From Larkinella rosea (GTDB lineage Bacteria > Bacteroidota > Bacteroidia > Cytophagales > Spirosomataceae), in the NCBI RefSeq assembly GCF_003858635.1, contig NZ_RQJO01000011.1, forward strand, positions 501,739-565,738: a DNA stretch of 64,000 nucleotides. Direction: 5' to 3'. The notes beneath the pieces are model-generated. The model made no database searches, was not told the DNA's origin, and worked only from the letters and a program-made list of their open reading frames with translations. Numbering within the stretch: position 1 is the first letter of the stretch; the number at the start of each line of letters is the position of its first letter. The position numbers were made by a program, and so were the translations under genes. Shown here piece by piece: positions 39,293-62,612 of the stretch.

Positions 39293-39322
39293 TAAACGAC
39301 TTATTTTCAATTTATTACCACA

Positions 39323-40168: not shown

Positions 40169-40215
40169 ATTGGTGCCAGGAAATCGGTAGTTTTAGCGGT
40201 GTAATTCCCTGCTGC

Positions 40216-41175: not shown

Positions 41176-41223
41176 CGAAAGACCGGTATCATTTTTATCA
41201 TTTCAATCACCGTAATCATCGTC

Positions 41224-45200: not shown

Positions 45201-45330
45201 GCTGCTGGTGGAACGGATGAGAACCATCGAGCAGCAAACCCTGGATATTAGTCGCCAGTTGCCCGGACTGTTGCTGCTTCGGGCCACGAGCGGCTCTCAG
45301 TCGGTGACGCTGAAGGTGTTGAAACCGTAG
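42241..45330 (+). CDS. Leucine-rich-repeat surface protein with Ig-like domains and T9SS signal
   Basis: The 1029-residue protein has a signal peptide (FFYLVINFVLLASASVQA) and an LRR cap (LADLYNSTNGPGWTKSTNWL ... CGWYGISC). About fifteen plant-type 24-residue LRRs of the form LSGEIPxSFGNLTNLxxLSL follow to residue ~430. A region of unknown fold (~440-530) precedes a GWAWD domain (536-640), two He_PIG Ig domains (~645-822), a second GWVWD domain (833-930) and a T9SS type A sorting domain (LEVILLGNPVSRDQIEVQIR ... LPGLLLLRA). It should be a cell-surface adhesion or recognition protein. The LRR-coding DNA is clearly more AT-rich than the C-terminal half. A terminator follows. Confidence 0.9.
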   Translation: MHHFYKNAPNWLIVARHSFFYLVINFVLLASASVQASSADPHPDYAPLADLYNSTNGPGWTKSTNWLTTDNPCGWYGISCKENRVTDINLENNNLIGSIPGTIGDLANLRLLSLYNNTLSGEIPGNLGNLIKLVYLFLDNNKLSGSLPASLGNLINLSNIALNDNELSGPIPSSFGNLTNLVNFYSYNNNLTGTIPTSLGNLTKLQGISLGNNALSGEIPDSFGNLTNLVSLSLYENQLEGTLPSSLGNLVNLTFLSLSTNKLSGEIPDSFGKLIKVWYLTLDYNELSGPLPGSLGNMASLEHLALNRNKLTGTLPDNFKNLTKLSRLYAGQNQFSGDFPALLLNLKNLQSISLNYNQFSGTIPSTLGTLEKLETLALDHNQFTGAIPASLGNLTKVKYINLRGNRLSGCFPVTLKALCGQTIDFTDNPGLPGGGNFTAFCNNEPGSNTMSAPTLALSAGVSQPVLQNTPSVSITVSGCEGGTVNWAGPNNTKGTGATIPVPTAAVGTFAYSATCTVGSCVSPSGTASVVISAGSTAGNFDGFVYGIDCETFRGWAWDRDKVNTVITVDILDGANVIATIPAGDFRQDLLNAGKGNGKHAFSFPIPASLKDGRPHQLTARVAGSNFQLKNPPKALTCQGSGGPVNLPPVAPVTSPLSATIGQLFWLNLPAFSDPENSTLVYTLTGLPLGLNFTAQDRLIIGSPMMYGNFTLTYSAKDNQQATTQVFISLTVALNQLPVAPTTTPLSATIGNAFSTVLPAFTDPENQSLTYALSGLPVGLSFTAGNRTISGTAASGTAGSYVLTYSASDGTNTTPVSISLTVASGSTAPPISVTGEFEGYLSVVSCQEMRGWVWDRTKPNTPLMVEFFSDGISIGTMEAKNYRQDLKDAQKGNGNHGYVFPTPAGIKNNVTHQISAKVQNSIYFLKGSPIALKCAPSGRLSAESPDRLEVILLGNPVSRDQIEVQIRGAEGQSLKLELTDASGRLVQQLLVERMRTIEQQTLDISRQLPGLLLLRATSGSQSVTLKVLKP

Positions 45331-49000: not shown

Positions 49001-49254
49001 TCCTGCGCGGTAAAAACCTGTTGCTGGGGTACACCTTCCCGAGTCTGATCACGAATAAATTGAAACTGAACCGTCTGCGGGCGTATCTGTCGGTACAGAA
49101 TTTCTTCCTGCTGGTGAAAGATCCGATCGTGGGTGATCCAGAAGTTACGCCGACCAACCAGGGGGATGATAACAGCGCGTTCTCACAAGGGATGATCTGG
49201 CACAACTATCCCAAACCGACCACCTATATGTTCGGTTTGCAGATTGGTTTGTAA
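46039..49254 (+). CDS. SusC/RagA family TonB-linked outer membrane protein
   Basis: The 1071-residue protein has a signal peptide (CLFPTLLAFVCTSIAFA) and a carboxypeptidase-regulatory-like domain (LTGKVIDETNSALPGVSIVI, residues ~54-130). A TonB box-like stretch EIVVIGYGTAKKSDLTGAV and plug domain (LSGRMPGVQVNTNSGRPGG ... LYVVDGVM ... VEVLKDASSTAIYGARGANG) follow, then a 22-strand barrel ending in FGLQIGL. It imports a nutrient, usually an oligosaccharide or peptide, with its SusD partner 172 bp downstream. No sigma/anti-sigma pair or glycosidase is adjacent, so the substrate is not predictable. Confidence 0.97.
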   Translation: MIKFVLPQAQLSRMVKLCLFPTLLAFVCTSIAFAAKAPNSGTSKTALATALVDRTLTGKVIDETNSALPGVSIVIKGTTRGTVTDANGEYKIEVPESGATLVYSFVGYLSQEVSVGGRNSIDVSLKADNKVLDEIVVIGYGTAKKSDLTGAVGTVKEAELKERPAPSLQQALSGRMPGVQVNTNSGRPGGRTTIRVRGFSSINSSNNPLYVVDGVMLPQGNGAQFSSAIDYINPNDIVSVEVLKDASSTAIYGARGANGVVLVTTKKGKSGQGQVTYNVDFSVNTIGPNRPHVLNSAQYVATEDLAWANMAKYDPVGWAAGKWAYLNPKLRRTDPRVWNSDGSPKYDTNWLEEATQNKLSQNHQLGFSGGNERTQYSISLGYRDDQGLIKTSYLKRYSGRFTIDDQVKKWLKIGGTLSYNNQSENIVDQGDAVARQIVEDFPFLPVKYDDGTYANNRDYPYAEGTMSSVHRLMDTKYILNTQTTLGSMYSNITFAKGLEMRTILGANIQTQENNQSVTRTLNIGGNGNASTSNRKESFWSLENYLTYNKQINEKHAINALLGISWQETNVFSQSASVSGFATDYFGFNNLGAGATNPSVGSGASRFAFNSYFGRINYSLMDKYLLTVTGRADGSSKFGENHKFAFFPSTALAWRASEEEFLKGNPVISNLKVRTSFGLTGNSEIPAYTSLSLLSSNYATVYGDTKVTGTGISRLANPDLRWEKTAQTDVGVELGLLKGRINIEADYYYRKTTDMLLDAPVPRTSGYATIRRNVGSMQNKGVELGINTVNIDAGGFQWNTTFNISFNRNKVLSLATPSDIFNVGGPNFTNPTNVIRVGQPVGSFWGLTRVGVWSEAEREEAAKFTSYRNGLTILPGDIKYLDVNGDKAITDADRSIIGNGSPKGWGAFTNSFRYKNFDLTFETQFSYGNKVMLMNLHPSEDRQALANSYTSVLNAWTPTNQNTMIAEIRDTRAGYVTNVDSHWIKDGSFLRGKNLLLGYTFPSLITNKLKLNRLRAYLSVQNFFLLVKDPIVGDPEVTPTNQGDDNSAFSQGMIWHNYPKPTTYMFGLQIGL

Positions 49255-49426
49255 AATTTTGGTTGACGGTTTTCCGTTTACGGTATTTGCTGGGCCGACG
49301 TTTCGGTAGGCTGACGCATTCATTACTTTAACCGACTGTAACCCCAAAACGGAACGCCGTATGCCCGAAACCCTATTTGCAAAGTTACCCCGTTGATACT
49401 AAGTACTTTAAAAAGCGATTCTTACA

Positions 49427-50983
49427 ATGAAACATATAGTGAATAAAGTAAGCAAAGTAGCCCTGTTAGGAGCTATTCTGCTGGGTCCGGTCGGTTGCAA
49501 GGATTTCCTCAAAGAGCAGGCTCCTTCCAACCTGACGCCCGACAATTTTTACACCATTCCCGATCACGCCGAAGCGGCTATTGCTTCGGTCTACGCCGAC
49601 ATGCGATTTATGGGCGATGGGGCCGGGATTTTCTCGTCGAACTGGCAATTGCTGGAAGCTCTGACCGGAACATCCACGACGGAAACCGCCCAGAATTCCG
49701 ATTTGAACAACCTGTACGGGTTGGTGCATGATGGCAACACGATTCATGTGGTCAACTACTGGAACGGACTTTACAAAGTGATCGCGCAGGCCAACCAGGT
49801 GCTCGATAAGGTGCCGGGCATCACGCCGATGGACGACGCTCAGAAAAAGAAAATTCTGGGAGAAGCCCGGTTTTTGCGGGCTAATGCGTATTTCACGGCG
49901 GTTCGGCTTTGGGGTGATATTCCCCTGATTACCAAGCCGCAAACGGCTTCTTCGGAAGACTTCCAACCTTCACGGACTCCGCAGGAAGATGTTTACAAAC
50001 TGATCGTGGATGATCTGGTGGCGGCTGAAGCGGCCGGTTTGGCCTGGACGGATGTGTCGGGACGCGTGAATCTGGCGGCAGTGAAAACGCTGCTGTCGAA
50101 AGTGTACCTGACGATGGCCGGTTTTCCGCTGAGCAAAGGGGCCACGCACTACAAACTGGCGGCTGATAAGGCCTTCGAAGTCATCACCTACGCCAATGCG
50201 AATCCCACCGAAATCGGCCTGTTTGCTTCGCTGGAGGATGTACACAAGGAAAGCACCGAAAACCGACTGGAGCATCTTTTTGAGTTGCAGTATAACACGC
50301 TGGTGGCCGGAAATCCGATGGACAACATGTATCCCAACTTCAAACCGGTGACGTACAACGGTCCATCCGGAACGGGTAGTACGGTGCCAACGCCCTCATT
50401 CTACGCTTCCTACGAAAAAGGCGATTTGCGGGCGAAAGATCAGGGCTATTTCTACTCGACTTACTTCACCAATGGCAGTGGAGACCGGTTTGAGCTGGGA
50501 GCGAACTACATCTTCAAGCATTTCAACCGGACGGCCAACGGTACTCAGGGAGTAGCCGGAACGCGTCAGAACAACCTGAACGTGCCGCAAATCCGGTATG
50601 CCGAAACGCTGCTGATCTTTGCGGAAGCGCAGAACGAAGTGGGCGCTCCGACGCAGGCGGCTTACGATGCGCTGAAGAAAGTTCGGGATCGGGCGGGTCT
50701 GACGACGCCGGCTTTAGGCACCTACACCCAGGCAACGTTCCGCGAAGCGGTTTGGCGGGAGCGGTGGCACGAACTGAGCTACGAGCAGATCACCTGGTTC
50801 GACATGGTGCGGCTGCGGAAAGTGTACAACGACAAAACGAATGGGTTTGACAACTTTGTGGGTCACGTAAATCCGAGTTCGAACCAGCCGTTGCAGGAAA
50901 AACATTTGCTGCTGCCGCTGGGCAAGCAGGAAATGCTGAACAACCCGAACCTGAAACCGCAGAATCCGGGTTATCCGAACTAA
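49427..50983 (+). CDS. RagB/SusD family nutrient uptake outer membrane lipoprotein
   Basis: The 518-residue protein has a lipoprotein signal (LLGAILLGPVGCKDFL, lipobox Cys at residue 25). SusD features include LTPDNFYTIPDHAEAAIASV, YWNGLYKVIAQANQVLDKVP and LGEARFLRANAYFTAVRLWG in the TPR-like part. The C-terminal part shows NLNVPQIRYAETLLIFAEAQ and FREAVWRERWHELSYEQITW. It forms the lid on the SusC transporter on the outer surface and captures the ligand. A terminator follows at 51001-51051. Confidence 0.97.
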   Translation: MKHIVNKVSKVALLGAILLGPVGCKDFLKEQAPSNLTPDNFYTIPDHAEAAIASVYADMRFMGDGAGIFSSNWQLLEALTGTSTTETAQNSDLNNLYGLVHDGNTIHVVNYWNGLYKVIAQANQVLDKVPGITPMDDAQKKKILGEARFLRANAYFTAVRLWGDIPLITKPQTASSEDFQPSRTPQEDVYKLIVDDLVAAEAAGLAWTDVSGRVNLAAVKTLLSKVYLTMAGFPLSKGATHYKLAADKAFEVITYANANPTEIGLFASLEDVHKESTENRLEHLFELQYNTLVAGNPMDNMYPNFKPVTYNGPSGTGSTVPTPSFYASYEKGDLRAKDQGYFYSTYFTNGSGDRFELGANYIFKHFNRTANGTQGVAGTRQNNLNVPQIRYAETLLIFAEAQNEVGAPTQAAYDALKKVRDRAGLTTPALGTYTQATFREAVWRERWHELSYEQITWFDMVRLRKVYNDKTNGFDNFVGHVNPSSNQPLQEKHLLLPLGKQEMLNNPNLKPQNPGYPN

Positions 50984-51140: not shown

Positions 51141-51174
51141 AAACCGTCCGGATTAAAGTCCGGGCGGTTTTTAT
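51141..51174 (+). terminator. Second terminator-like hairpin
   Basis: AAACCGTCCGGA (51141-51152) pairs with TCCGGGCGGTTT (51159-51170), one G-T wobble, 6-base loop, followed by TTATTTAT. It may be a backup terminator after the SusCD operon. Confidence 0.55.
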
Positions 51175-51771: not shown

Positions 51772-52998
51772 ATGCGGTCAATCATTCTTCTCTGCGTTTG
51801 TTTTTTCAGCCTGGCGCCTGTGCGGGCCCAATCCCAACCGACTTTCCACGTCATTCTGGTCGGTGCTACCGAAGACAAAGTTCTGGCCCGGGCCTGTCAG
51901 AACGATGTGGTTGAAGTGCACGAACAGTTTAAGCGTATTGCCGAAAGCATCGGTTATGCCTATAAACCGCGCCTGTTGGCGAAAGACCATTTCAGTAATG
52001 ACTACATCGGGGGGGTCGTGAATCAGTTAACCTGCGCTCCGGAGGATATTATCGTGTTTTACTACACCGGACACGGTTTTAACACCACCAAATACGACGG
52101 AAATTTCCCGATCATGATGGTGGATACGGTCGGAAGTAACTATCCTCTCATGCTGATTCACCAGGAGTTGATGAAAAAGAAACCCCGGTTTTGTCTGACC
52201 ATTGGCGATTGCTGCAATAAAGTAGTCGACGAAAAACTGCCAAAAGACCGCTCGATGGTGAAAGGGACGCAGTGCGATGCGGCCATTTACCGGCAGTTAT
52301 TTCTGGAACAGCAGGGGGGGGTTATTGCAACGAGCAGCAAACGGGGGCAGGTGTCGGGCGCTTCAGTGGACGGAAGTTTTTATACCAAGGCCCTTCTGGA
52401 AGCGATGGATTACGCCTGTCATTACAACAATCAGGTGACGTGGAGTCAATTGCTCGAAGATACTCAAACCCGGATGTGGGGCATTAAAGCGGCTCGTTTG
52501 GCCGGGCAGAAATCGATTTTTGAACTCGGATTGATCAACAATGCGGCAACCCCGCCCGCACCGGCGGTTGTTGCTCAGAACAACCCGGCGAATTCCAACG
52601 CCGGTCAGCCGGTTGCTGCAGTAACGCCGGTCGCACCGCCCGCAATGCCAGCCGGTTCCGGTCAACCGGCTCCCGCACCAGCTCAAGGCCCGAATTTCAG
52701 TGATGTCAACAGTTTTTTAAACACCCTGACGGACGAATCAATCGCCTATAAGGTACGCACGGTAACGCAAACGCAGGCCGGCAAATACTTTGTTCACAAC
52801 GCCCGGGTGAAAGTTTACGTCAACGCAACGCAGGTTGCGCAAATGCCGCTCGACCAGTTAATGAGCCGCTATTCGTCCCTGGCGGCCAGCATCCGGCAGG
52901 TCAACGTGGTGGAACGGCTTTCCAAATTAGATTCCTCCGGCCAGCTTTATACCGAAGTGGCCGTTCAGGAAATCTGGGAACCGGTGAAGAAAAATTAA
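51772..52998 (+). CDS. Secreted caspase-like protease (C14 family), first gene of caspase operon
   Basis: The ATG at 51772 (MRSIILLCVCFFSLAPVRAQ) starts a signal peptide and gives 408 residues; an upstream GTG would bury the signal. The caspase p20-like fold is evident: TFHVILVGATEDKVLARACQ, IIVFYYTGHGFNTTKYDGNF with His101, and CLTIGDCCNKV with Cys147/Cys148, the latter aligning with the catalytic Cys. VIATSSKRGQVSGASVDGSF and YTKALLEAMDYA match the later caspase strands. A Pro/Ala-rich linker (~255-305) leads to a C-terminal ~100-residue domain of unknown function. A periplasmic or surface endopeptidase is likely; the DCCN around the nucleophile is unusual. Confidence 0.85.
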   Translation: MRSIILLCVCFFSLAPVRAQSQPTFHVILVGATEDKVLARACQNDVVEVHEQFKRIAESIGYAYKPRLLAKDHFSNDYIGGVVNQLTCAPEDIIVFYYTGHGFNTTKYDGNFPIMMVDTVGSNYPLMLIHQELMKKKPRFCLTIGDCCNKVVDEKLPKDRSMVKGTQCDAAIYRQLFLEQQGGVIATSSKRGQVSGASVDGSFYTKALLEAMDYACHYNNQVTWSQLLEDTQTRMWGIKAARLAGQKSIFELGLINNAATPPAPAVVAQNNPANSNAGQPVAAVTPVAPPAMPAGSGQPAPAPAQGPNFSDVNSFLNTLTDESIAYKVRTVTQTQAGKYFVHNARVKVYVNATQVAQMPLDQLMSRYSSLAASIRQVNVVERLSKLDSSGQLYTEVAVQEIWEPVKKN

Positions 52999-53027
52999 CT
53001 CAATCAATTCCACATTCCACGATACGA

Positions 53028-53663
53028 ATGAAATCATTTTTGCTACTGACACTGCTGACGGTTTCTTCAACTGCGGCCTGGTCCAATGAAAATGTTTCCG
53101 CCGATTCGGATACGCTGACCCAACAGCAACTGGAGGGCTTTGGCCGCGAAGCTAAAAACCGGATCAGTACTTTGGTCGATTATCTGGGGGTAATTGTGAA
53201 TAAAAACCGCTCTTACGAGGAAAGGAAAGACGCCATCCGGCAGGCTTCGCTCATGTTTTCGGAAAAAGCCACGGTCGAAGTGTCCAACATCAAAACCGGG
53301 ATGATTACCCGATTACCCATTCGGCAGTACCTCGAAAAAATAAAGATGCTTTCCTACGACCGGGTGGAGATCAAAAGCTACTGGCCGGCTGGATTGAGTG
53401 TCTGGAAAAAGGTGGCGGATGGCTCTTATCAGGCTTCCGGGCAGTATTTTCTGGAATTTGAGGCCTGGAGAAACGGAAATACGAAGTCCGTTGAGGCAGA
53501 TGAATCCGTGAAAATCATTTCTGCCGAGCTCAAAACCGTGGATGACCCTTTCTATGGGGGCAAGAAATGGATGCTTTTGTTTACGGGAGAATCGACAATG
53601 AGTATTCAGAGTAAATCCGTGGATTCCAGTGCGGTTATGCGGCAGCCGGTGAAAAAGAACTAA
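53028..53663 (+). CDS. Secreted protein of unknown function, paralogue A
   Basis: The 211-residue protein has a signal peptide (KSFLLLTLLTVSSTAAWS). It shares with the next gene the segments DTLTQQQLE-FG-EAKNRI, VDYLGVI, KNRS-EER-DAIRQA, VE-SNI-TG, PIRQYLEKIK-LSYDRVEI, DGSY-A-GQYF and DPFY, at clearly more than 40 per cent identity. The pattern is compatible with an NTF2/SnoaL-like alpha-beta cone, but that is a guess. It is 29 bp downstream of the first caspase gene. Its C-terminus (RQPVKKN) resembles the caspase C-terminus (WEPVKKN). Confidence 0.65.
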   Translation: MKSFLLLTLLTVSSTAAWSNENVSADSDTLTQQQLEGFGREAKNRISTLVDYLGVIVNKNRSYEERKDAIRQASLMFSEKATVEVSNIKTGMITRLPIRQYLEKIKMLSYDRVEIKSYWPAGLSVWKKVADGSYQASGQYFLEFEAWRNGNTKSVEADESVKIISAELKTVDDPFYGGKKWMLLFTGESTMSIQSKSVDSSAVMRQPVKKN

Positions 53664-53686
53664 CCTAACTAAACAAGATACGACCA

Positions 53687-54313
53687 ATGAAACCATTTTT
53701 TCTATCGCTGGCACTGAGTCTGATGGGATTCTGCCATTCGGTCCATGCGCAGGGGATGCAAAAAGCGCCCGCCAGTGCGGATACGCTGACGCAGCAACAA
53801 CTGGAGGACTTTGGTAATGAGGCTAAAAACCGGATTAAAGCATTCGTAGACTATCTGGGGGTGATTGCGGATAAAAACCGTTCATTCGAAGAACGGAACG
53901 ATGCCATCCGACAGGCCATGCTGATGTTCCAGAAAACAACCATGAATGGAAAACCTCCAATGGTTGAAATCTCCAACATTCGAACCGGGAAGTACAGCTA
54001 CTATCCCATCCGCCAATATCTGGAGAAGATAAAAACATTGTCCTACGATCGAGTGGAAATTACCAATTTTGAGTCGGTTCGGCTTAATAACTGGGAAAAG
54101 CAACCGGATGGCTCGTATCGGGCGACCGGACAGTACTTCCAGGGATTCAAGGCCTGGAAAAACGGCAATACGCAGCCAGTTTATGCGGATAAAACGACCA
54201 AAAAAATTGCCGCCGATCTCAATGTCAGGGAAGATCCTTTTTACAAAGAGAAGCAGTGGATGGTACTGTTTGGCGATATCACGGTTGCCATGACGGAACA
54301 GGACAACAATTAA
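53687..54313 (+). CDS. Secreted protein of unknown function, paralogue B
   Basis: The 208-residue protein starts with the signal peptide KPFFLSLALSLMGFCHSVHA and is a tandem duplicate of the preceding gene, 23 bp away. Conserved blocks with paralogue A span almost the full length. Differences concentrate in a short insertion (TTMNGKPPM) and in the C-terminal tail. The duplication is old enough that the DNA is well diverged. Function unknown; likely periplasmic. Confidence 0.65.
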   Translation: MKPFFLSLALSLMGFCHSVHAQGMQKAPASADTLTQQQLEDFGNEAKNRIKAFVDYLGVIADKNRSFEERNDAIRQAMLMFQKTTMNGKPPMVEISNIRTGKYSYYPIRQYLEKIKTLSYDRVEITNFESVRLNNWEKQPDGSYRATGQYFQGFKAWKNGNTQPVYADKTTKKIAADLNVREDPFYKEKQWMVLFGDITVAMTEQDNN

Positions 54314-54323
54314 ACCGCTCCGC

Positions 54324-55325
54324 ATGAAAATCTGGTATTTTTTAGTTGGATTGACGTTGCTCTCCACCAGCTACCGTCAGTTTGAGCGGGCTTTGCCCGG
54401 GCAGGAGATGTCGGCCGATACGCTCCGGCAGCCCATTGCTGCCGATACCCTGAAAAGCCGGCCCGCTGATTCACTGGCCCGACCGTATCTGACGGTGGTG
54501 AGTCGCCCGGCCGAACCGTTTATGATTCAGCGGATTGCGTTTGTGGACGATTTCCTGGCCCGGCTCAACTACCAGCGAACACCAACCCACCAGGCATTTG
54601 ATTCGCTGAGCCGACTGGCTTACCCGCGCGAACGCTACGTACGGATGTTATTTAACGAAGAAGATCCCCGGCTGAATCTGCGCTCGGGTCGGTACAGCCC
54701 GGCCTATCAGACGCTGGTCGACGATTTCGTAACCACGGTGGCAACCGATACGGCAGCGGTTTTATTACCCAAAGATTCGATGCAGTTATTTGGTGAAGTA
54801 GAGTATTCCGTTTTGTACCGGAATACACCCCATAAGATCCGGTTTTTTCTGAAACAACACCGGGTTGGGTCCGGCCACGACTGGAAGATCATCGATGCAC
54901 AGGCGGCTTTTCTGAAAATTACGAAGGCGGATACGATGACGAGCGATACCGTCAAACGCAATAACCCGCACCTGTACATCAGTTCCGAAACCCACGAAAC
55001 CCGGTTTTTAAACCTGTACAAATTGCTGCGCAGCCACGAAAACCTGCTGGCTTTTACGCTGGAGGGCTACCCGCCAAGTCCGGCGTTGCTCCGGCTGGCC
55101 CGGGCGTTGCGCGACGGCAGTCTGACGTTGCAGGAAACCCAGCAGGTGAATCTGTACCTGGATGTTCGCCGGGGGTGGTTGCTCAAACTGAATGATTTTC
55201 ACCGGGAAAAGGAGAATGCGGGCTGGCTCATTACCGACCTCTACAGCGTCGAATACCGGAGTCCGCTGCCCGCTCCAATTGACCGGTTTCTGACCTGGGC
55301 GGCATTGTCTAAAAAGTCTGACTAA
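54324..55325 (+). CDS. Secreted protein of unknown function in caspase operon
   Basis: The 333-residue protein has a short hydrophobic N-terminus (KIWYFLVGLTLLSTSY), probably a signal peptide. It has a Ser/Thr/Pro-rich stretch (~25-60) and then a domain with FMIQRIAFVDDFLARLNYQR, YPRERYVRMLFNEEDPRLNL, YQTLVDDFVTTVA, LFGEVEYSVLYRNTPHKIRF and HDWKIIDAQAAFL. A second region, LYISSETHETRFLNLYKLLR, ends the protein. No family is recognised. It starts 10 bp after paralogue B. Confidence 0.6.
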   Translation: MKIWYFLVGLTLLSTSYRQFERALPGQEMSADTLRQPIAADTLKSRPADSLARPYLTVVSRPAEPFMIQRIAFVDDFLARLNYQRTPTHQAFDSLSRLAYPRERYVRMLFNEEDPRLNLRSGRYSPAYQTLVDDFVTTVATDTAAVLLPKDSMQLFGEVEYSVLYRNTPHKIRFFLKQHRVGSGHDWKIIDAQAAFLKITKADTMTSDTVKRNNPHLYISSETHETRFLNLYKLLRSHENLLAFTLEGYPPSPALLRLARALRDGSLTLQETQQVNLYLDVRRGWLLKLNDFHREKENAGWLITDLYSVEYRSPLPAPIDRFLTWAALSKKSD

Positions 55326-55326
55326 G

Positions 55327-56355
55327 ATGGAACGCATGAAAAAGACACTGATATTGATTCTGCTGGGAATCTGGATTTCACTGGCAACCGGCTGGGCAAC
55401 TCCCCAAAAACCGTCGGGCATCGTTCTCATGGATTCGGCAGTAACGAATTTTCTGAAAAGATGGGAAAACCGGGTCAACCGACTCAGCAACCGGGTCGAT
55501 TCGGCGGAAATTAACAACCGTCGACAGGCCGCTCTGACCGGTTTCTTTATCGCCGATACCGTCCAGATTCCGGACCTGCGTCAACCCGCCGTCATTTACC
55601 GGCATACCATTCCTCAGGTGTCGGCCCGGAACTGGGTTGGTGGCTTTTCGAACCTGTTTTGGGAAGATGTCTTTCAGTTCAAAATTAACCCCAGCCGGAT
55701 GCAGGTTGTGGCCAAAAAAAGGAACCGTGTGCAACTGGAGGTAACGGTTTTCGTCGAACTAACGGGGATTCGGAACGAAGGTCGGCAGCCGCATCACCTG
55801 CGCGATGCGTGGGTATTGACGCTGGAGGCCAAAGCTATGAAATCGGCTTACCGGGATTTGGCTATTCGCAGCATTCGTCGGCTTGGCGGGCCGGTTGAAC
55901 TCCCCGGTTTGACGCTGGCTAAAGTGGCGGACTACCACGATCGCCTGCAGCATTGGTTCGTGCGGTTTTTGGCCGATTCGAGCCAGCGCACCGAAGCCCG
56001 CTGGCACCTGAAGGAATTGATGCGATCGGACACGGTTTTGGTTCGAATTGATGAGAAAACCGATACGCTCACGCTGGATCAACTCCTGCAGTTAAAGCTG
56101 CGGACCGAGTCGGTGGCCCGTTTCCAGGTTCAGTCGTTCGATATGGAATATTGCGACGAATTTCTCCGGAATCCCGATAATGTGCTGGTAGGTCAGTTGA
56201 TTCTGCTCGAAGGCATTACGGTTTCGGCGGATAATCAGCAACTCTACCAGCGTCGACGCACCGATGCGGTTCCTTTTCCGTCCCATCATTCGGGCCGCTG
56301 GGCGCAGGTGTCAAACGTAACCGTAAACTGGAATAAACCGAGCCAAACCCGATGA
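55327..56355 (+). CDS. Secreted protein of unknown function in caspase operon
   Basis: The 342-residue protein has a signal peptide (KKTLILILLGIWISLATGWA); ATG 55327 or 55336 may be the start. The mature part includes FLKRWENRVNRLSNRVDSAE, RQAALTGFFIADTVQIPDLR and QVVAKKRNRVQLEVTVFVEL. It ends with WAQVSNVTVNW. The VEVTVFVEL...LRDAWVLTLEA strands hint at a beta-rich domain similar in layout to the preceding gene product, but I do not recognise a family. It starts 1 bp after the previous stop, and its own TGA overlaps the next ATG by 4 bp (ATGA). Confidence 0.6.
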   Translation: MERMKKTLILILLGIWISLATGWATPQKPSGIVLMDSAVTNFLKRWENRVNRLSNRVDSAEINNRRQAALTGFFIADTVQIPDLRQPAVIYRHTIPQVSARNWVGGFSNLFWEDVFQFKINPSRMQVVAKKRNRVQLEVTVFVELTGIRNEGRQPHHLRDAWVLTLEAKAMKSAYRDLAIRSIRRLGGPVELPGLTLAKVADYHDRLQHWFVRFLADSSQRTEARWHLKELMRSDTVLVRIDEKTDTLTLDQLLQLKLRTESVARFQVQSFDMEYCDEFLRNPDNVLVGQLILLEGITVSADNQQLYQRRRTDAVPFPSHHSGRWAQVSNVTVNWNKPSQTR

Positions 56356-57923
56356 AATCACTCCGGAATACGATACTGCTGGCGGCTTTGGTGAGCCTGA
56401 GTCTTTCGTTCCTGCAAGCCCAGTCAACCCGCACCGCCCAGCAATGGATGGACCTCGCCGACCAGGAAACCGATCCGCAGAAAGCCCTTGCATATTATAA
56501 GGAAGTACTGAAGATTCAGCCCGATGGGCCAACGGCCGCCGAAGCCTACAACGGTTGTGCGGTGATGCGTTCGGGGCCAACGGTGAAAGCTTACCGGGAA
56601 GCACTCGAGGACATCGAGCAGGCCATTCGGCGGAACGAAGGACCGGCCAAATACTACGCCCAGCGCGCTTACATCTACGTTCAGTTGAGCGAGTACGACC
56701 GGGCCGCCCGGGATTATGAGCAGGCCATCCGTCGGGCTCCCGCCAAAGCCGACTATTACAGCGGATTGAGCTATTGCCAGACCAAACACGGCCGGTTCGA
56801 TGAAGCCGAAACTACCGCGCAAAAAGGCATCGATTTAGATGCAAAATCGCCGTATGCCTACCGAAACCGGGGGCGGGCGCGGTTGCGGAAAGGTCAAATT
56901 GATGTAGCCATTGCCGATTTTCAGACCAGCCTGCAATTGAAACACGGCCAGCTTTTTCGGGTCTATTGTGATCTGGGCGAAGCGTATGAGCAAAAAGGCG
57001 ATTCGCAGCAGGCTCTGAAGTATTACCAGCAGGCCCTGGACCGCGACCCTGATTTTGCCGATGCGCTGGTGGGCAAACGGCAACTGGAGCAGAAGTTGAA
57101 GACGGGGGGCGGTGCGTCAATCCTGCCCGCGTCGAACTTTACGGGCCGCCGGGTGGCGCTGGTGCTGGGCAATTCCGGTTACCAGTACATCAATAGCCTG
57201 GACGGGCAACCCGCAAACGATGCCCGGAGCATGGAGAAACGATTGACCGAACTGGGCTTCGAAACCGTGCTGGCGGTGGATCTGGCGCGCGATGCCACCG
57301 AAAAAATGCTGCGGGAATTCTACGCAAAAGCCAGTAAAGCCGATGTGGTGCTCGTGTTCTATGCGGGTCACGGCGTACAGCATCATGGCGAAAACTACCT
57401 GTTGCCCATTGACATTCAGCTGAAAAAAGCGGAAGATATTGAACTACAGGCATTTTCGGTCACCAACCTGATCGATGCCCTGCAAAAGCAGGAACCCCGG
57501 TATTGCATTTTCATCATCGATGCCTGCCGCGATGACCCATTTAGTAAACCCGCTGGAACGGTTGCCCCCGTTGGAGCGAATAATCCGGATAAGGAAAAAC
57601 ACCGGTCCGTGGCGCTTCCGAAAGGAATCGAACAACCCAAACCCGGCCAGGGGATGGCGCGGGGTTTTCGGCCCATCCACGTCGAAAGCCGCATCCGTAA
57701 CTGCTACGTGGCCCTGGCAACGGCGCCGGGTGCGACCGCCCGCAACGGCCCGAATCAGAATGGCTATTATACGTCTGCCTTGCTGACACACCTGAAAAAA
57801 GGCAGACGGATCGACGACGTGTTTCGCGATGTGCGCAGCGAAGTGGTGAAGCAAACACAGAAAAGCGGTTTTTCCCAACAACCCGAATACATCGACCGAA
57901 CCGTTGAATACCTCATTTTATAA
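56352..57923 (+). CDS. Secreted TPR plus caspase (C14) protease
   Basis: The 523-residue protein has a signal peptide (ILLAALVSLSLSFLQAQ), about five TPR motifs (residues ~25-245, for example YYAQRAYIYVQLSEYDRAAR) and a C-terminal caspase domain (~262-523). The caspase part has RVALVLGNSGYQYINSL, ANDARSMEKRLTELGFETVL, VLVFYAGHGVQHHGENYLLP with His340, and YCIFIIDACRDDPF with Cys392. These are canonical bacterial orthocaspase motifs. GYYTSALLTHL and QTQKSGFSQQPEYID also match family strands. TPR-caspase fusions are typical of regulatory or scaffolded bacterial caspases. It is coupled to the preceding gene by ATGA. Confidence 0.92.
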   Translation: MKSLRNTILLAALVSLSLSFLQAQSTRTAQQWMDLADQETDPQKALAYYKEVLKIQPDGPTAAEAYNGCAVMRSGPTVKAYREALEDIEQAIRRNEGPAKYYAQRAYIYVQLSEYDRAARDYEQAIRRAPAKADYYSGLSYCQTKHGRFDEAETTAQKGIDLDAKSPYAYRNRGRARLRKGQIDVAIADFQTSLQLKHGQLFRVYCDLGEAYEQKGDSQQALKYYQQALDRDPDFADALVGKRQLEQKLKTGGGASILPASNFTGRRVALVLGNSGYQYINSLDGQPANDARSMEKRLTELGFETVLAVDLARDATEKMLREFYAKASKADVVLVFYAGHGVQHHGENYLLPIDIQLKKAEDIELQAFSVTNLIDALQKQEPRYCIFIIDACRDDPFSKPAGTVAPVGANNPDKEKHRSVALPKGIEQPKPGQGMARGFRPIHVESRIRNCYVALATAPGATARNGPNQNGYYTSALLTHLKKGRRIDDVFRDVRSEVVKQTQKSGFSQQPEYIDRTVEYLIL

Positions 57924-57942
57924 CACTAGTCTACTGACAATC

Positions 57943-59445
57943 ATGAAACGATTTATACGGACGGTTCCTGGGGCCTTGTTGTTGATTCTGACGGCTTTAC
58001 AGCTGGCGACGGCGCAGCAGAACTTTACGAAAGGCGACAGTGCGTCATTTATTATTCACTGCCATACGGCGCTGGAAGATTACGTCAGTTCGTTGAACGC
58101 AGCCGGTTTTTACTGCCAGTCGCAGGGGGAATTCAACAGCAAACAACAGGTGTTGATTGCGCAGTCATTTCTCGGCAAAGATGTGTTTGTGTACAGCGAT
58201 CTGGCGTCCGAACCCTACCCGATCGAGCAGTATTCGCAGCAATTCCGGCTTTATAAAGGCAATGCCGAAGTCAATCTGGATCAGGAGAAATACGTGCTGA
58301 GTCAGAATAAAACGGGAAAACCGGTGCTGATTGTGTACGTGACGCAAACGACGGAGTTTGAAAAACCGGGCACGAGCCGCACCAAACGGACGACTCCGCT
58401 GGCCATTCATTTTGCCTTCGATTTCAAGCCGGAAGCAACGGGTTTTGAACCCCAGAATTACCGGATTGTCCGGATCGAAAAGGCGGACGCCATTCCAGCG
58501 AGAGCCGTGCCGTTTCCGGCCGGAGTTAACCTGATTGCGCTGCGCGAGCGGGAACGCAGCCTGAGCTGGGCGACCTACCGGCTGGCTAAAAGCATCGCTG
58601 AAACCTTGCCTGATAAGAAACGCGCCGTGGTGATCCGGAAATTTTCGTATGAGAACAGCCAGCTGACCAATGCCTTTTCCGACCAGTTAGCCGATGAACT
58701 GCGGCATCGCCTTAAAACCGATCAGGGAATTCGGGTGGTGGCCGACGAAACGAGCCAGGAGCAGGGCATTCGCGGAAGTTACCGCGAAAGGGGGGGGCAG
58801 GTCGAAATTACGGCGGAACTTTTTGAGGTGGGAACCGACAAAAGCGTGACCAAACTCAAACCCAATCTGGATTTGCCGACCGTCTGGGTGCAGCAAAAAG
58901 GACTGAAACTGAAACCGGAGGATAACGATGCGGCCATTGCTACCCAGCAGGCCATCGTCGTGGATGCCCCTGCGCCAGCGGAAGCCGCCAAACCGGAAGC
59001 CCTGCTGGTGACGATGACGGCTTCGGGAAAGACACGAAAAAATCTGGAATTCTGGGAAAATGATACGATGACGGTTCGGGTGCGGGCCAATAAGCCCTGC
59101 CACGTGCGGCTCGTGTATGTGCAGTCCAACGGCGAAATCGCGATGCTCTGGAAAGATCTTGAAATCAAGGCTGGTGAGGAAAACAAAGACATCGTATTTC
59201 CCGAACAGTTCAAATGCATTCCACCTTTCGGTCAGGAAACGCTGATTGCGGCCGCTTCGACCTCACGGTTCTGCCCAATCGAAACCAAAGAAAATGAACA
59301 CGGTGCCGAGATCATTGTCGGTTCGATGAAAGATGCGCTGAAAAACATGCGGTGCGTCGATCGTGGGTTTACCCGAATTCCGCAACTGGCAGAAACGCGG
59401 CTTGTGCTGACCACCCGTGGTTCAAACCTGATGAGTCAAAAATAA
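57943..59445 (+). CDS. Secreted DUF4384-like protein
   Basis: The ATG at 57943 (MKRFIRTVPGALLLILTALQ) gives 500 residues with a signal peptide. The middle part resembles the FlgO/CsgG-like nucleotide-free alpha-beta fold: AKSIAETLPDKKRAVVIRKF, FSDQLADELRHRLKTDQGIR, VVADETSQEQGIRGSY and ITAELFEVGT. The C-terminus has the DUF4384 pattern WENDTMTVRVRANKPCHVRL, VQSNGEIAMLWKD and QETLIAAASTSRFC. DUF4384 domains commonly accompany bacterial caspases, which supports a shared role with the neighbouring gene. It follows the TPR-caspase gene by 19 bp. Confidence 0.8.
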   Translation: MKRFIRTVPGALLLILTALQLATAQQNFTKGDSASFIIHCHTALEDYVSSLNAAGFYCQSQGEFNSKQQVLIAQSFLGKDVFVYSDLASEPYPIEQYSQQFRLYKGNAEVNLDQEKYVLSQNKTGKPVLIVYVTQTTEFEKPGTSRTKRTTPLAIHFAFDFKPEATGFEPQNYRIVRIEKADAIPARAVPFPAGVNLIALRERERSLSWATYRLAKSIAETLPDKKRAVVIRKFSYENSQLTNAFSDQLADELRHRLKTDQGIRVVADETSQEQGIRGSYRERGGQVEITAELFEVGTDKSVTKLKPNLDLPTVWVQQKGLKLKPEDNDAAIATQQAIVVDAPAPAEAAKPEALLVTMTASGKTRKNLEFWENDTMTVRVRANKPCHVRLVYVQSNGEIAMLWKDLEIKAGEENKDIVFPEQFKCIPPFGQETLIAAASTSRFCPIETKENEHGAEIIVGSMKDALKNMRCVDRGFTRIPQLAETRLVLTTRGSNLMSQK

Positions 59446-59498
59446 CCAATCGCCTATTGAATCGAACTTTCTAATTATCCTGTCTAACCCATTCACGT

Positions 59499-61250
59499 AT
59501 GAAAATGCTGCGCTATTCGTTTCTGATGACCCTGCTGCTGTTGCTGCCAGCTATCCTGTTCGCCCAGAAGCGGGAAAAGAAGAAAAAGGAAGAAGAAAAA
59601 CCGGCCGTGGTAGCCCCTCAACCTGTTGTTGAAGACAAACCGGTGGATGATGTTCCGCGTAATAAGAATGCAAAAGGGACAATCATCGAGTTTAAGCCAC
59701 CTTATAATCACATGCTGGTGCTAGCCGAAGATGATGAAGAAGGGCGATATCGCCACGTTTTCCTAACCGATTCTACGCTGTTTCCGAAGCATAAGGTTTC
59801 ATATAATAAAGACAAGCGGAAACCGGTAAAACCGAAGGATTTAATCTCTCGTTCTTTTTTTCGGGCAGGGATGGAGATCAATTTCCATTTCGATCATTAC
59901 CAGAGTTCACTGCGAAATGTGGCCAAAGAAATTTATTTGGATGATGATTATTTTGGTAATGCGAAGGTCAATGGGATTCTGGAATTCCGGGATGGAAATC
60001 GGGCAGTAATTGATGGCCATGAAGTCCGGCTGGACAATGGAGCCGTGATCAAAGGGGAGGAGGAATGGAAAAACAAGACGTTCACCACCTTTAATCAGAT
60101 GCAACTGGGAGCCGAATTGACGGTACGCGGTCGGCGTGATACGACAGGCGTCATTTTTGTAAAAAAGGGGACCATGCGGCCAGTTGATATCACTAAGGAC
60201 GATTTGATGATGCGCCGAGCCATGAATCGCGCCATGGTGATGAACAAGGATGTTCTGCAGATCGGCAAGGAAACCTCATTCCGGTTTGTCACGGATCGGA
60301 ACATCTTTGCGTACGTCAACGACATTGGTCAGAAACTGATTCCGGAATACCTGAAATCGCTGGATATTGAACACCCCGATTTCATCAATTTTAAGTTTTA
60401 TCTCGTTCACGATGACTCGTTCAATGCATCCGCTTATCCGAATGGGACGGTTATTGTGCATACAGGCCTACTCAAACAGCTGGAAAACGAGGCTCAACTG
60501 GCGGCCATTCTGGGCCATGAAATTGCGCATGTGACCCAGCGGCATCATACCAAAAGTTATCGAAACGGAAAAGACTGGCAGGCATTTGCCGATTTTAGTA
60601 ACGTAGCACTCGGCACGCAGGTTTCCTCCGATATTCCGGCTCAGGTGATTCAGGCAGCGAAAGATATGAAGTATAGCAGCTATGATCGGAATCAGGAAAC
60701 CCAGGCTGACCGGATCGGTTTGCAGTACATGTTCAACGCTGGGTATGATCCTCGCGAGGCTGCCAAGATATGGGATAAACTGGCGCGGGAAGAAAAAAAC
60801 GATATTGAATCGCCCATCGAAGCCGAAGCCCTGCAATTTGCGATGAATGCATCGAGTACCGGTGAGCAACGAGCGGACAATAACGATCGGGCAAAAAAAA
60901 TGGCTGCAATGGGTCAATCAATGCGAAAACAGGATTTCGCATTAATGATGTTCCGGAATGTGGCGGCTAAAAAAGGGGAGTCGGTCTATGCGTCTCACCC
61001 GCGTTCCCGCGACCGGTATAACCACGTCAACTTCCTGCTATCGACGGCTTTTGCCTTCAAGGATTTTGAGAAACTGTCGACCGGCGAGAGCGAGTTTAAA
61101 AACATTCAGTCGAAGATAACGGCGCCCGCTTCAACGCCCGTACCGACCTCTACTCCGCCCGGATCCGGAAGCAATGGACCTAAACCCCCCAAGCCACTCA
61201 AAACTCCGAAAAGCAAACCCGGCGGGAAATCTTTCGTAAAACCTAAATGA
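59499..61250 (+). CDS. Secreted M48 family zinc metalloprotease
   Basis: The 583-residue protein has a signal peptide (FLMTLLLLLPAILFAQ), then a charged Lys/Glu tract. A ~200-residue N-terminal region of unknown function contains IIEFKPPYNHMLVLAEDDEE and a possible OB/KOW-like repeat. The M48 domain (from ~265) shows NAYP-like FNASAYPNGTVIVHTGLL, the zinc motif HEIAH at 340-344 and the third-ligand motif ETQAD at 400-404 with Glu400. The Pro-rich tail has the repeat PKPPKPLKTPKS. It would cleave misfolded or specific envelope proteins, like BepA or YcaL. It is the eighth gene of the operon, between a DUF4384 gene and a third caspase gene. Confidence 0.93.
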   Translation: MKMLRYSFLMTLLLLLPAILFAQKREKKKKEEEKPAVVAPQPVVEDKPVDDVPRNKNAKGTIIEFKPPYNHMLVLAEDDEEGRYRHVFLTDSTLFPKHKVSYNKDKRKPVKPKDLISRSFFRAGMEINFHFDHYQSSLRNVAKEIYLDDDYFGNAKVNGILEFRDGNRAVIDGHEVRLDNGAVIKGEEEWKNKTFTTFNQMQLGAELTVRGRRDTTGVIFVKKGTMRPVDITKDDLMMRRAMNRAMVMNKDVLQIGKETSFRFVTDRNIFAYVNDIGQKLIPEYLKSLDIEHPDFINFKFYLVHDDSFNASAYPNGTVIVHTGLLKQLENEAQLAAILGHEIAHVTQRHHTKSYRNGKDWQAFADFSNVALGTQVSSDIPAQVIQAAKDMKYSSYDRNQETQADRIGLQYMFNAGYDPREAAKIWDKLAREEKNDIESPIEAEALQFAMNASSTGEQRADNNDRAKKMAAMGQSMRKQDFALMMFRNVAAKKGESVYASHPRSRDRYNHVNFLLSTAFAFKDFEKLSTGESEFKNIQSKITAPASTPVPTSTPPGSGSNGPKPPKPLKTPKSKPGGKSFVKPK

Positions 61251-61269
61251 TTCTAACCCCAACACCGTG

Positions 61270-62532
61270 ATGCGCTTTATTTGTTATCTATCGCTTGTGA
61301 GTTTTGTCTGTCTGTTGGGCCTTCGGGCCCACGGGCAGGCGAAGCTGCATTTTATTGTTTTTGCCGATACCGACGATACGAGTCTCGGCGAAGCGAACCG
61401 GAAAACCTATAATTACCTGACGAACGATTTTGGCCCACACGCGGCTCAATACGCCGGGCTGGCGCTGGAGATGTCGACGTATAGCGGAAACCGCTGCCGG
61501 GCCGCCGAACTGGATCAGAAACTGGCTTCTCTGAACGTCGGAAATGACGATGTTGTCCTTTTTTACTTCATTGGGCACGGCTGGAACAATCGCACAAACG
61601 AGTATCCGTCCCTGATTTTTGGCAATGCCGGGGCCGACCGGGCCACGCTCGAAACCAGTTCGCGCAACCTGATGGCGGTTTATGAGCAGATTCGGGCCAA
61701 ACACCCCCGGCTGGCGCTGGTGATCGGCGAAGCCTGTAATAAGGAACGGAACGATGATCCACCGGTGACCAGCAAGCGGGAAGCCATTCCGATGAAACCG
61801 GTCACGCCCGATCCGGCCAAGTACAAATGGCTGTTTCGGAATTACGCCGGGAGTTTGATCATGAGCAGTTGCAAGCGCAATCAGTTCTCGTTCAGCGATC
61901 CGAAAGGGGGCTGGCTGGGGGTATCCCTGCACACGACATTCGATAACTTACTGGGCGTTACGGCAAAAGGAATGCCGTCCTGGGAGAGTGTTGTTAAAAT
62001 GACGACCGAACAGACCGAAGCGGCCGCCGTCAAAAATAACCAGAAGCAGAATCCGCAGCATATCATGGCCATCGTACCTTTCAAGGGCAATGGGAATGAT
62101 AATCCTCCGCCCCCTCCGCCACCGCCGGGAGATGGTCCCTGCCCGCCCGTGGATAGCTACGTCAACGAAACCGCTCTGGCGGGAATCCGGGAAGATTTGC
62201 CGTTTCTGCGCAAAATGGATGAGGAAATCAGTACGGACAACGCGGCCCAGTTTGCAAAAACCTTTGACACCTTTTATAAAAACCAGAAGAACTTCTACGA
62301 TTCCCTGAATAAAATGCTTTTCTACGAAAGTGCCGAAATGCCACCACGTTGTCAGGCGAGTTTTCAGCAGGACACCCGTTGGGTCAAAAACAGCACGACG
62401 GAAATCATTCGCCGGTATCAGATTGTTGTCAAATTGAGTAAAGAACCGCAGCAACTGGTGGCACAGGCCCGGAGCGAATTGCCCTCGCTGATCCTGCGGC
62501 TGGAGGAGATTTTGAAGAAGCTCGACAAGTAA
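61270..62532 (+). CDS. Secreted caspase-like protease, last gene of caspase operon
   Basis: The ATG at 61270 (MRFICYLSLVSFVCLLGLRA) follows a GTG and gives 420 residues with a signal peptide. The caspase core shows LHFIVFADTDDTSLGEANRK, VVLFYFIGHGWNNRTNEYPS with His103, and LALVIGEACNKE with Cys156. Here Glu replaces the usual Asp of DAC. LIMSSCKRNQFSFSD fits a later caspase strand. A polyproline linker (~274-282) leads to a ~130-residue helical C-terminal domain (NAAQFAKTFDTFYKNQKNFY). It resembles the first caspase of the operon in size and layout but has a different tail. The gap after the M48 gene is 19 bp, and a strong terminator follows. Confidence 0.85.
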   Translation: MRFICYLSLVSFVCLLGLRAHGQAKLHFIVFADTDDTSLGEANRKTYNYLTNDFGPHAAQYAGLALEMSTYSGNRCRAAELDQKLASLNVGNDDVVLFYFIGHGWNNRTNEYPSLIFGNAGADRATLETSSRNLMAVYEQIRAKHPRLALVIGEACNKERNDDPPVTSKREAIPMKPVTPDPAKYKWLFRNYAGSLIMSSCKRNQFSFSDPKGGWLGVSLHTTFDNLLGVTAKGMPSWESVVKMTTEQTEAAAVKNNQKQNPQHIMAIVPFKGNGNDNPPPPPPPPGDGPCPPVDSYVNETALAGIREDLPFLRKMDEEISTDNAAQFAKTFDTFYKNQKNFYDSLNKMLFYESAEMPPRCQASFQQDTRWVKNSTTEIIRRYQIVVKLSKEPQQLVAQARSELPSLILRLEEILKKLDK

Positions 62533-62576: not shown

Positions 62577-62612
62577 AAATGTGCCCCGCCCGTGAGCGGG
62601 GCACATTTTTGT
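62577..62612. terminator. Strong terminator of the caspase operon
   Basis: AAATGTGCCCCGC (62577-62589) pairs perfectly with GCGGGGCACATTT (62596-62608) around a 6-base loop and is followed by more T residues. It also lies 6 bp past the minus gene ending at 62618, so it probably acts in both directions. Confidence 0.9.

What the first reader, a model, noticed from the sequence alone, without database searches (positions are those of the whole stretch)
51772..62532. Nine-gene secreted caspase / metalloprotease operon
Nine plus-strand genes are packed with gaps of 53 bp or less and two coupled junctions, ending at a strong terminator. Three encode different exported caspase-like proteins (one fused to TPRs), one an exported M48 metalloprotease and one a DUF4384-like protein; four are exported proteins of unknown function. 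Known: bacterial caspases often occur with DUF4384 domains. Inference: because nearly all members carry signal peptides, this works in the periplasm or on the surface, unlike cytoplasmic caspase defence systems. It could be a proteolytic cascade, a stress response or a self-killing module. I know of no description of this exact set.
Basis: partly seen in the sequence, partly recalled or inferred. Interest (0 to 1): 0.78.

Follow-up and report, generated by a model that had tools for sequence, protein, structure and literature searches.

The report
Exported caspase operon of Larkinella relatives
A bacterium of the genus Larkinella carries a row of nine genes for exported proteins, three of them caspase-like protein cutters, and the core of this set recurs together in scattered members of its family, which points to a protein-cutting system of the cell envelope whose purpose is still unknown.

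Summary
Nine plus-strand genes (51772-62532) lie between two hairpin terminators. They encode three caspase-type peptidases with intact His-Cys motifs, a BepA-like M48 protease and a DUF4384 protein, all with export-like N-termini; all nine are under purifying selection. The genome is a Larkinella (Spirosomataceae). The core (caspase A, caspase B, NTF2-like gene, DUF4384 gene, often g4 and g5) recurs: of 24 caspase B loci of 15 kb or more, 23 carry the NTF2-like domain and 23 the DUF4384 domain; of 31 more distant caspase loci, none does. Distances of three families correlate at r 0.93-0.96, so the core is inherited as a unit. One domain, NTF2-like by predicted fold, recurs in caspase B, g2, g3, g5 and the DUF4384 protein. 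M48 plus caspases is a second module, joined to the core here. Relatives of both modules sit beside type VI secretion (T6SSiii) genes: 25 of 87 NTF2-domain hits are within 20 kb of TssC, about 0.4 expected, though mostly in a larger protein than the window's. The window genome has no TssC. Best explanation: a periplasmic proteolytic module that responds to envelope damage or contact attack (0.35); biochemistry and function are untested.

The parts
51141..51170 (+). Hairpin terminator behind the SusD gene; separates SusCD from the operon
   Evidence: 13-pair stem with T-rich tail; fold z -3.9
51772..52998 (+). g1, caspase B: exported, H101 and C148 (GHG...GDCCN), C-terminal domain homologous to g2/g3
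   Evidence: PF00656 8e-9; invariant columns in 11 sequences; hhalign of the C-terminal domain to g2/g3 99%. An in-frame GTG at 51649 gives a longer ORF; 51772 gives the signal peptide
53028..53663 (+). g2, exported NTF2-like protein (tandem copy of g3; three congeners have one gene here)
   Evidence: 56% identical to g3; single copy in L036/L037/L056/L059
53687..54313 (+). g3, exported NTF2-like protein
   Evidence: AlphaFold2 pLDDT 88.8; best Foldseek matches mostly of the NTF2-like fold, E 1e-3 to 1e-2
54324..55325 (+). g4, exported protein of unknown fold (two helix + three-strand units in the model)
   Evidence: AlphaFold2 pLDDT 77; no PDB match better than E 0.07; family in 15 of 24 core loci
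55327..56355 (+). g5, exported protein with domains related to g2/g3 and to the g7 N-terminus
   Evidence: hhalign g5 to g2/3 66%, g5 to g7N 92%
56352..57923 (+). g6, caspase A: exported TPR-caspase, GHG...DACRD
   Evidence: PF00656 1e-37 and TPRs; best caspase-region match in the PDB is MALT1, E 4e-10
57943..59445 (+). g7, exported: N-terminal g2/3-like domain, middle region, C-terminal DUF4384 (alternative start 57904)
   Evidence: PF14326 1e-7, in 19 of 19 homologues; hhalign g7N to g2/3 95%
59499..61250 (+). g8, exported M48 metalloprotease (HEIAH), BepA-like catalytic domain with its own N-terminal region
   Evidence: PF01435 2e-28; HE..H invariant in 7 sequences; PDB BepA 1e-27
61267..62532 (+). 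g9, caspase C: exported, GHG...GEACN, own C-terminal domain
   Evidence: PF00656 3.4e-5; 72-73% identical in three congeners
62577..62608 (.). Symmetric terminator-like hairpin that closes the operon
   Evidence: 14-pair stem called on the - strand; + strand RNA folds with z -5.5 and the stem runs into five T

Best explanation
A lineage-restricted proteolytic module of the cell envelope. Shown: an operon-like row of nine genes; three caspase-type peptidases with intact His-Cys motifs and an M48 protease with an intact HExxH; a recurring domain, NTF2-like by predicted fold, on or beside the caspases; a core inherited as a unit. Inferred, in order of falling certainty: (1) the proteins go through Sec into the periplasm and stay there or at the outer membrane (no lipobox, no T9SS tail); (2) the NTF2-like domains are the docking units that bring caspase B, g2/g3, g5 and g7 together, and the TPRs of caspase A recruit clients; (3) on envelope damage or contact attack (for example a T6SS hit) the caspases are activated and cut a small set of envelope proteins, while the BepA-like M48 clears misassembled ones; (4) the outcome is repair or removal of damaged or foreign envelope protein rather than death.
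For: Gene order, bounding hairpins and purifying selection. Of 24 caspase B loci of 15 kb or more, 23 have the NTF2-like domain, 23 DUF4384, 23 a caspase A. Of 24 strong caspase B places in 150 family genomes, 23 lie within 15 kb of g7 and 22 within 3 kb of the NTF2-like domain. Distances r 0.93-0.96 over 25 operons. Fusions of caspase B to the g2/3 domain and to DUF4384. GHG in 32 of 32 caspase B/C and 29 of 31 caspase A ORFs of L056-L084. Nearest solved M48 relatives include BepA (its quality-control role is recalled). T6SSiii linkage: 25 of 87 g2/3-domain hits within 20 kb of TssC, about 0.4 expected; M48 and caspases next to a ClpV-like gene in L127 and L145 and, with a kinase gene between, in L039; the core next to a ClpV-like gene and TssC in Spirosoma endophyticum. 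Sigma-factor-like genes near several core operons.
Against: No experiment. Export rests on hydropathy and reading by eye. The window genome has no TssC. By open-frame length, 17 of the 23 TssC genes with a g2/3-domain neighbour have a larger (about 340-445 aa) protein, not the window type. Only 1 of 24 strong caspase B places is within 15 kb of TssC (with 8 of 55 TssC places; the rest compared by eye), and contig breaks may hide others. Direct profile links of the caspase B domain to g5 (20%) and to g7 (2%) are weak; they go through g2/3. Sigma-factor matches exceed Pfam's cut-off only in L070 and L071 (region 4), and L078 has none. The operon is sporadic: g7 over 200 bits in 21 of 150 family genomes.
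Confidence: 0.35

Rival explanations
1. Housekeeping outer-membrane quality control: the M48 and caspases are ordinary envelope proteases that mature or clear outer-membrane proteins, with no link to attack or damage.
For: g8 catalytic domain is BepA-like; no known effector or toxin domain among the nine.
Against: Sporadic distribution (any g7 match in 27 of 150 family genomes); the M48 N-terminal region is in only 3 of 24 core loci.
Confidence: 0.22
2. Contact-warfare accessory or immunity: periplasmic proteases that process T6SSiii parts or degrade incoming T6SS effectors; in Larkinella an orphan copy kept for defence without its own T6SS.
For: T6SSiii linkage of the g2/3 domain, of M48 with caspases and of one full core.
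Against: No TssC in the window genome or in G001-G007; 23 of 24 strong caspase B places are not near TssC; linked genomes are related, so not independent.
Confidence: 0.2
3. Programmed self-killing from the periplasm: activated caspases cut essential envelope proteins.
For: Several caspases in one operon with intact motifs; caspases act in cell death elsewhere (established knowledge).
Against: No pore-former or known death effector among the nine; no inhibitor gene recognised.
Confidence: 0.13
4. Nutrient proteolysis: exported proteases for feeding, next to a SusCD pair.
For: SusCD lies directly upstream in the window.
Against: Terminator hairpin between them; in L. humicola, L. punicea and strain C7 the SusC gene lies behind the short caspase operon instead; TPR, NTF2-like and DUF4384 partners do not suggest bulk digestion.
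Confidence: 0.1

Closest known systems
Bacterial orthocaspases / metacaspases (peptidase family C14, PF00656)
   Same: Caspase domain with His-Cys motif in g1, g6, g9. Precedents in passages read: DUF4384 at the C-terminus of an alphaproteobacterial group with a trypsin-like domain, and a TAT-like signal on cyanobacterial pseudo-orthocaspases (PMC6426788)
   Different: Export-type N-termini on three distinct caspases in one operon, linked to NTF2-like partners; caspase B has a GDCCN active site and a C-terminal domain homologous to g2/g3
BepA / LoiP (periplasmic M48 proteases)
   Same: M48 catalytic domain, HExxH, export-type N-terminus; PDB match to BepA 1e-27
   Different: 118 bits against a BepA cut-off of 570; long N-terminal region of its own; no TPR match
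T6SSiii of Bacteroidota (TssNQOPR membrane complex, PMC10781749, passages read)
   Same: Relatives of the operon's families lie beside T6SSiii loci in several genera
   Different: No Tss gene recognised among the nine; no TssC in the window genome
NTP-dependent conflict systems with caspases (PMC7159879, passages read)
   Same: Caspase domains as members of operons with other domains
   Different: The passages describe systems built around MoxR-vWA, STAND, FtsH or GTPase components and one membrane-associated two-gene system; no such component among the nine
Polymorphic-toxin immunity proteins Imm-NTF2 and processing caspases (PMC3482391, passages read)
   Same: NTF2 fold and caspases, some with Sec signals, both occur in bacterial conflict
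   Different: No toxin domain among the nine; none of 23 g2/g3 homologues matches an NTF2-type Pfam family

Membership tests
Orthocaspase / metacaspase (C14) | PF00656 domain above cut-off | tested here: met
   g1, g6, g9
Orthocaspase / metacaspase (C14) | His-Cys catalytic dyad | tested here: met
   GHG and DxC/ExC motifs in the three window proteins; GHG in 32 of 32 B/C and 29 of 31 A homologues
Orthocaspase / metacaspase (C14) | Cleavage after Arg/Lys | not testable with these tools
   Needs an assay
BepA | M48 domain with HExxH and export-type N-terminus | tested here: met
BepA | NCBIfam BepA cut-off and TPR tail | tested here: not met
   118 of 570 bits; no TPR match in g8
PADLOC-listed defence systems | Strong match to system-specific models | tested here: not met
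   Only the generic caspase model (g6 41 bits, g9 20, g1 17) and a TPR model (15 bits)
T6SSiii | TssC sheath protein in the genome | tested here: not met
   0 matches in G000
T6SSiii-linked accessory | Families adjacent to Tss genes in relatives | tested here: inconclusive
   25 of 87 g2/3-domain hits and four loci with caspases (L039, L127, L145, L068/L123), but not the window and only 1 of 24 caspase B places
T9SS cargo | C-terminal sorting domain | tested here: not met
   No Por_Secre_tail in the nine, while window proteins 24470-30433 and 42241-45330 match it
NTF2-like superfamily (g2/g3) | NTF2-like alpha+beta fold | tested here: inconclusive
   Predicted model only: topology fits; Foldseek TMt 0.46-0.58 to scytalone dehydratase, ketosteroid isomerase, LinA, CaMKII association domain, but 0 matches at E <= 0.001 and no sequence match

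The most novel reading that the evidence does not exclude
An extracytoplasmic caspase signalling system: exported caspases of three kinds, scaffolded by NTF2-like domains, that senses contact-dependent attack on the envelope. It would have grown up next to T6SSiii in this family and become a free-standing defence or repair module in lineages such as Larkinella, most of which carry no T6SSiii.
Probability: 0.22. Interest if true: 0.85.

Novelty: new variant of a known kind. Interest (0 to 1): 0.6.

Why it matters
What bacterial caspases do is largely open, and the described bacterial caspase systems that I know of act mostly in the cytoplasm (recalled). A conserved export-type set of three caspases with named partner domains gives a defined operon, in genera with cultured species (Larkinella, Spirosoma, Dyadobacter), in which that question can be tested. 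The proximity of related genes to T6SSiii offers a concrete condition, contact attack, under which to look.

Tried and rejected
A single-protein scan of genome contigs with g1 found no relative; the scan with alignment A1 found 60 loci. A tubulin-like neighbour (L060) looked like a partner but passed the family cut-off in 1 of 11 genomes only. PF05943 as T6SS marker found nothing in 13 genomes; the TssC model PF17541 matched 7 of 13. A CsgG-like reading of the middle of g7 was not supported by hhalign. The Bacteroidetes promoter motif (recalled) gave 2 matches in the window, none near the operon, 1.6 expected. g4 has no recognisable fold. Polymorphic-toxin immunity, PADLOC defence and T9SS cargo were considered and dropped. 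Literature searches for an earlier description (open-licence PMC papers; titles and abstract starts of the listed papers only, and searches listed a part of what matched) showed none on an exported caspase operon of this kind or on caspases at T6SSiii loci.

Rows dropped before counts: three fragment rows of g7 (G000:C14 twice, G006:C9) and all M48 rows under 200 bits; two of the 87 g2/3-domain rows kept there are weak (E 7e-4, 8e-4). In one search five partial g7 places (G140, G090, G060, G078, G159) and the weaker A1 rows were dropped, keeping 24 strong and the next 25; one of the kept g7 places (G016) is the DUF4384 part alone. Only 8 of 55 TssC places were given; the other caspase-bearing genomes were compared by eye. 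The 0.38 expectation assumes 7 Mb genomes and uniform placement; the linked genomes come from 7 of the 13 genera with TssC (counted by hand) and are not independent. Four of the 31 distant loci are shorter than 10 kb.
Full report
What is there. The window belongs to an 8.17 Mb genome. Nine plus-strand genes run from 51772 to 62532 with gaps of 29, 23, 10, 1, -4, -20, 53 and 16 bp. The -20 overlap depends on a TTG start; the ATG at 57943 is likelier because the signal peptide then starts the protein (my reading). Hairpins bound the set: 51141-51170 behind SusD and 62577-62608 behind g9, with fold z-scores of -3.9 and -5.5. The scan as a whole found 20 terminator-like sites where 17.7 are expected, so the weight lies on these two folds. 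No convincing promoter was found.

The proteins. g1, g6 and g9 have PF00656 caspase domains above cut-off, g6 with TPRs; g8 is M48; g7 ends in DUF4384; g2-g5 have no match over a cut-off. All nine start with a hydrophobic segment, have no lipobox and no later transmembrane-like stretch. In six of nine (g1, g3, g6, g7, g8, g9) a glutamine follows a plausible cleavage site, as in the Bacteroidetes Q-rule (PMC5837995, start of abstract seen; sites judged by eye). None has a T9SS tail. The nine are 53-76% identical to their L. humicola counterparts with dN/dS 0.13-0.29, dS being near saturation.

One domain recurs. Profile-profile comparison links the C-terminal domain of caspase B, g2/g3, g5 and the N-terminus of g7: g2/3 to g1C 99%, to g7N 95%, to g5 66%; g5 to g7N 92%. 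The direct links of g1C to g5 (20%) and g7N (2%) are weak, and g4 is linked to nothing (3% at best). The model of g3 (pLDDT 88.8) has the helix-helix-strand-helix-strands order of NTF2-like proteins (recalled). The best Foldseek matches are mostly of that fold (fold membership recalled): scytalone dehydratase, ketosteroid isomerase, LinA and CaMKII association domain with TMt 0.46-0.58, and dioxygenase small subunits with 0.38-0.47; E is 1e-3 to 1e-2, none at or below 0.001, and a few BPI-like chains (SPLUNC1, BPIFA1) are among them. So the fold is probable, not proven. g4 gave a weaker model (pLDDT 77) and no fold match.

Active sites. The 32 caspase B/C ORFs of loci L056-L084 all have GHG; 26 of the 29 B proteins read GDCCN, the others GDCCS, GDMCN and ADCCN. 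Of 31 caspase A ORFs 29 have GHG. The two without are an ORF cut by a contig end (L058) and a WD40-caspase (L068). The best caspase-region match of g6 in the PDB is the paracaspase MALT1 (E 4e-10). Caspase B has only a weak match to trypanosome metacaspase MCA2 (E 0.005). g8 matches BepA (1e-27) but fails its NCBIfam cut-off.

Conservation as a unit. A scan of named genome contigs with caspase B brought 60 loci. Among the 29 closest, 24 are at least 15 kb long; of these 24, 23 carry the NTF2-like domain, 23 DUF4384, 23 a caspase A, 15 g4, 9 g5 and 3 the M48 N-terminal region and the g9 tail. The 24 include two loci from the same genome in some cases. None of the 31 more distant loci carries any of these; four of them are under 10 kb. 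In 150 family genomes, 23 of 24 strong caspase B places lie within 15 kb of g7 and 22 of 24 within 3 kb of the NTF2-like domain; one miss (G002) is a contig end, the other a caspase B-DUF4384 fusion (G016). At genome level 20 have both, one has g7 only, none caspase B only (strong rows). Distances of caspase B, NTF2-like protein and g7 over 25 operons (window and 24 loci) correlate at r 0.93-0.96, with 0 of 2000 permutations as high. Caspase B is fused to the g2/3 domain in the short Larkinella operons and to DUF4384 in Fibrella. Of 345 genomes of the class, 5 match g7: the window's, one family member, and three others with partial matches.

Variation. The full set is colinear in three of eight congeners (one split over two contigs) and, without g5, in a Cytophagales MAG. 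These congeners have one NTF2-like gene where the window has two, and after g9 a CsgG/LpoB-like gene and a fourth caspase (the CsgG/LpoB name comes from the homologue in L058). Homology to the congeners ends at the g9 stop. A CsgG-caspase pair 42% identical lies elsewhere in the window genome. A g8-type M48 over 200 bits occurs in 13 places in 150 genomes; 8 of 13 are within 10 kb of a g2/3-domain hit, seven of those also with a g7 on the same contig, so M48 is joined to a core in more than Larkinella. A second, shorter operon (caspase A, caspase B fused to g2/3, DUF4384) exists in L. humicola, L. punicea, sp. C7 and L. soli; in the window genome it survives only as fragments, several with stop codons, at C14:440343-441566. 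The four genes upstream of the operon in L. humicola, L. punicea and sp. C7 (ABC transporter, kinase, phosphodiesterase, 175-aa protein) are 67-92% identical to window genes at 37343-41751; in the window an LRR gene and SusCD stand in between. Core operons of other genera add export-type papain proteins, LamG/PKD proteins and sigma-factor-like genes (Pfam-checked only in L060, L061, L066, L070, L071, L077, L078, the rest by eye).

Link to T6SSiii. In Spirosoma endophyticum a core operon without g4 and g5, and with a WD40-caspase in place of the TPR one, runs into a ClpV-like gene, with TssC further on the same contig. The M48 gene stands next to a ClpV-like gene with three caspases in L145 and with one caspase seen before the locus end in L127, and in L039 with three caspases and a kinase gene between. 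A g4 relative lies 2.5 kb from a ClpV-like gene in a Runella genome. Over 150 family genomes, 25 of 87 g2/3-domain hits lie within 20 kb of a TssC gene, against about 0.4 expected under uniform placement, and 23 of 55 TssC genes have such a hit. Against a simple reading: in 17 of those 23 the hit is a larger protein (open frames); in L039 it has an OmpA-domain neighbour, and similar neighbours were judged by eye elsewhere. Only 1 of 24 strong caspase B places is near TssC, and the window genome and G001-G007 have no TssC, while G008 (L. soli) has one. The linkage is a lead about shared function, not proof.

How it most likely works. The parts point to the periplasm: an export-type set of caspases held by NTF2-like domains, with a quality-control type M48 protease added. 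I think the likeliest job is a response to envelope damage or contact attack (0.35). Rivals are plain outer-membrane quality control (0.22), T6SS accessory or immunity (0.20), self-killing (0.13) and feeding (0.10). Activation, substrates and outcome are inference throughout.

Novelty. The domain families are known, and exported bacterial caspases have precedents: TAT-like signals on cyanobacterial pseudo-orthocaspases (PMC6426788, passages) and Sec-exported toxins with caspase domains (PMC3482391, passages). The NTF2-scaffolded multi-caspase operon and its T6SSiii linkage did not appear in what I could search, nor in the passages of PMC6426788, PMC4933709, PMC7159879 and PMC3482391 that I saw. 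I rate it a new variant of a known kind.

Noticed in passing
G000:C14:440343-441566 (window genome, outside the window): Fragments, several with stop codons, of a second, shorter caspase B / g2/3 / DUF4384 operon that is intact in four congeners.
   Followed up: partly
L129-L148 and L039: A different cluster (lipoprotein-like protein, about 400-aa protein with C-terminal g2/3 domain, OmpA-like protein, g7N-like protein; mostly judged by eye) occurs beside T6SSiii in several genera and elsewhere beside tubulin-like or Hsp70-like genes.
   Followed up: partly
L108-L112: Bacteroidales MAGs (Prevotella, Paraprevotella, Bacteroides) carry two or three caspase genes of the caspase B type in tandem; none of the operon's partner families was found with them.
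   Followed up: no
L055:9984-11126: A caspase B-like protein in which the active-site cysteine motif reads VDGRD, so probably a pseudo-enzyme, next to one that keeps the Cys.
   Followed up: no
window 46039-50983: SusC is 88-89% identical to the gene that in L. humicola, L. punicea and strain C7 lies directly behind the short caspase operon; in the window the SusCD pair stands directly before the long one, which suggests a rearrangement between the two loci.
   Followed up: partly
window 24470-30433: 1987-aa protein with 12 matched He_PIG Ig-like stretches and a T9SS sorting tail.
   Followed up: no
G000:C10:1-927 (L054): A g9 paralogue (41% identical) with the start of a further caspase domain in the same frame, cut by the contig end; its active-site motif reads GEASN, without the Cys.
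   Followed up: no
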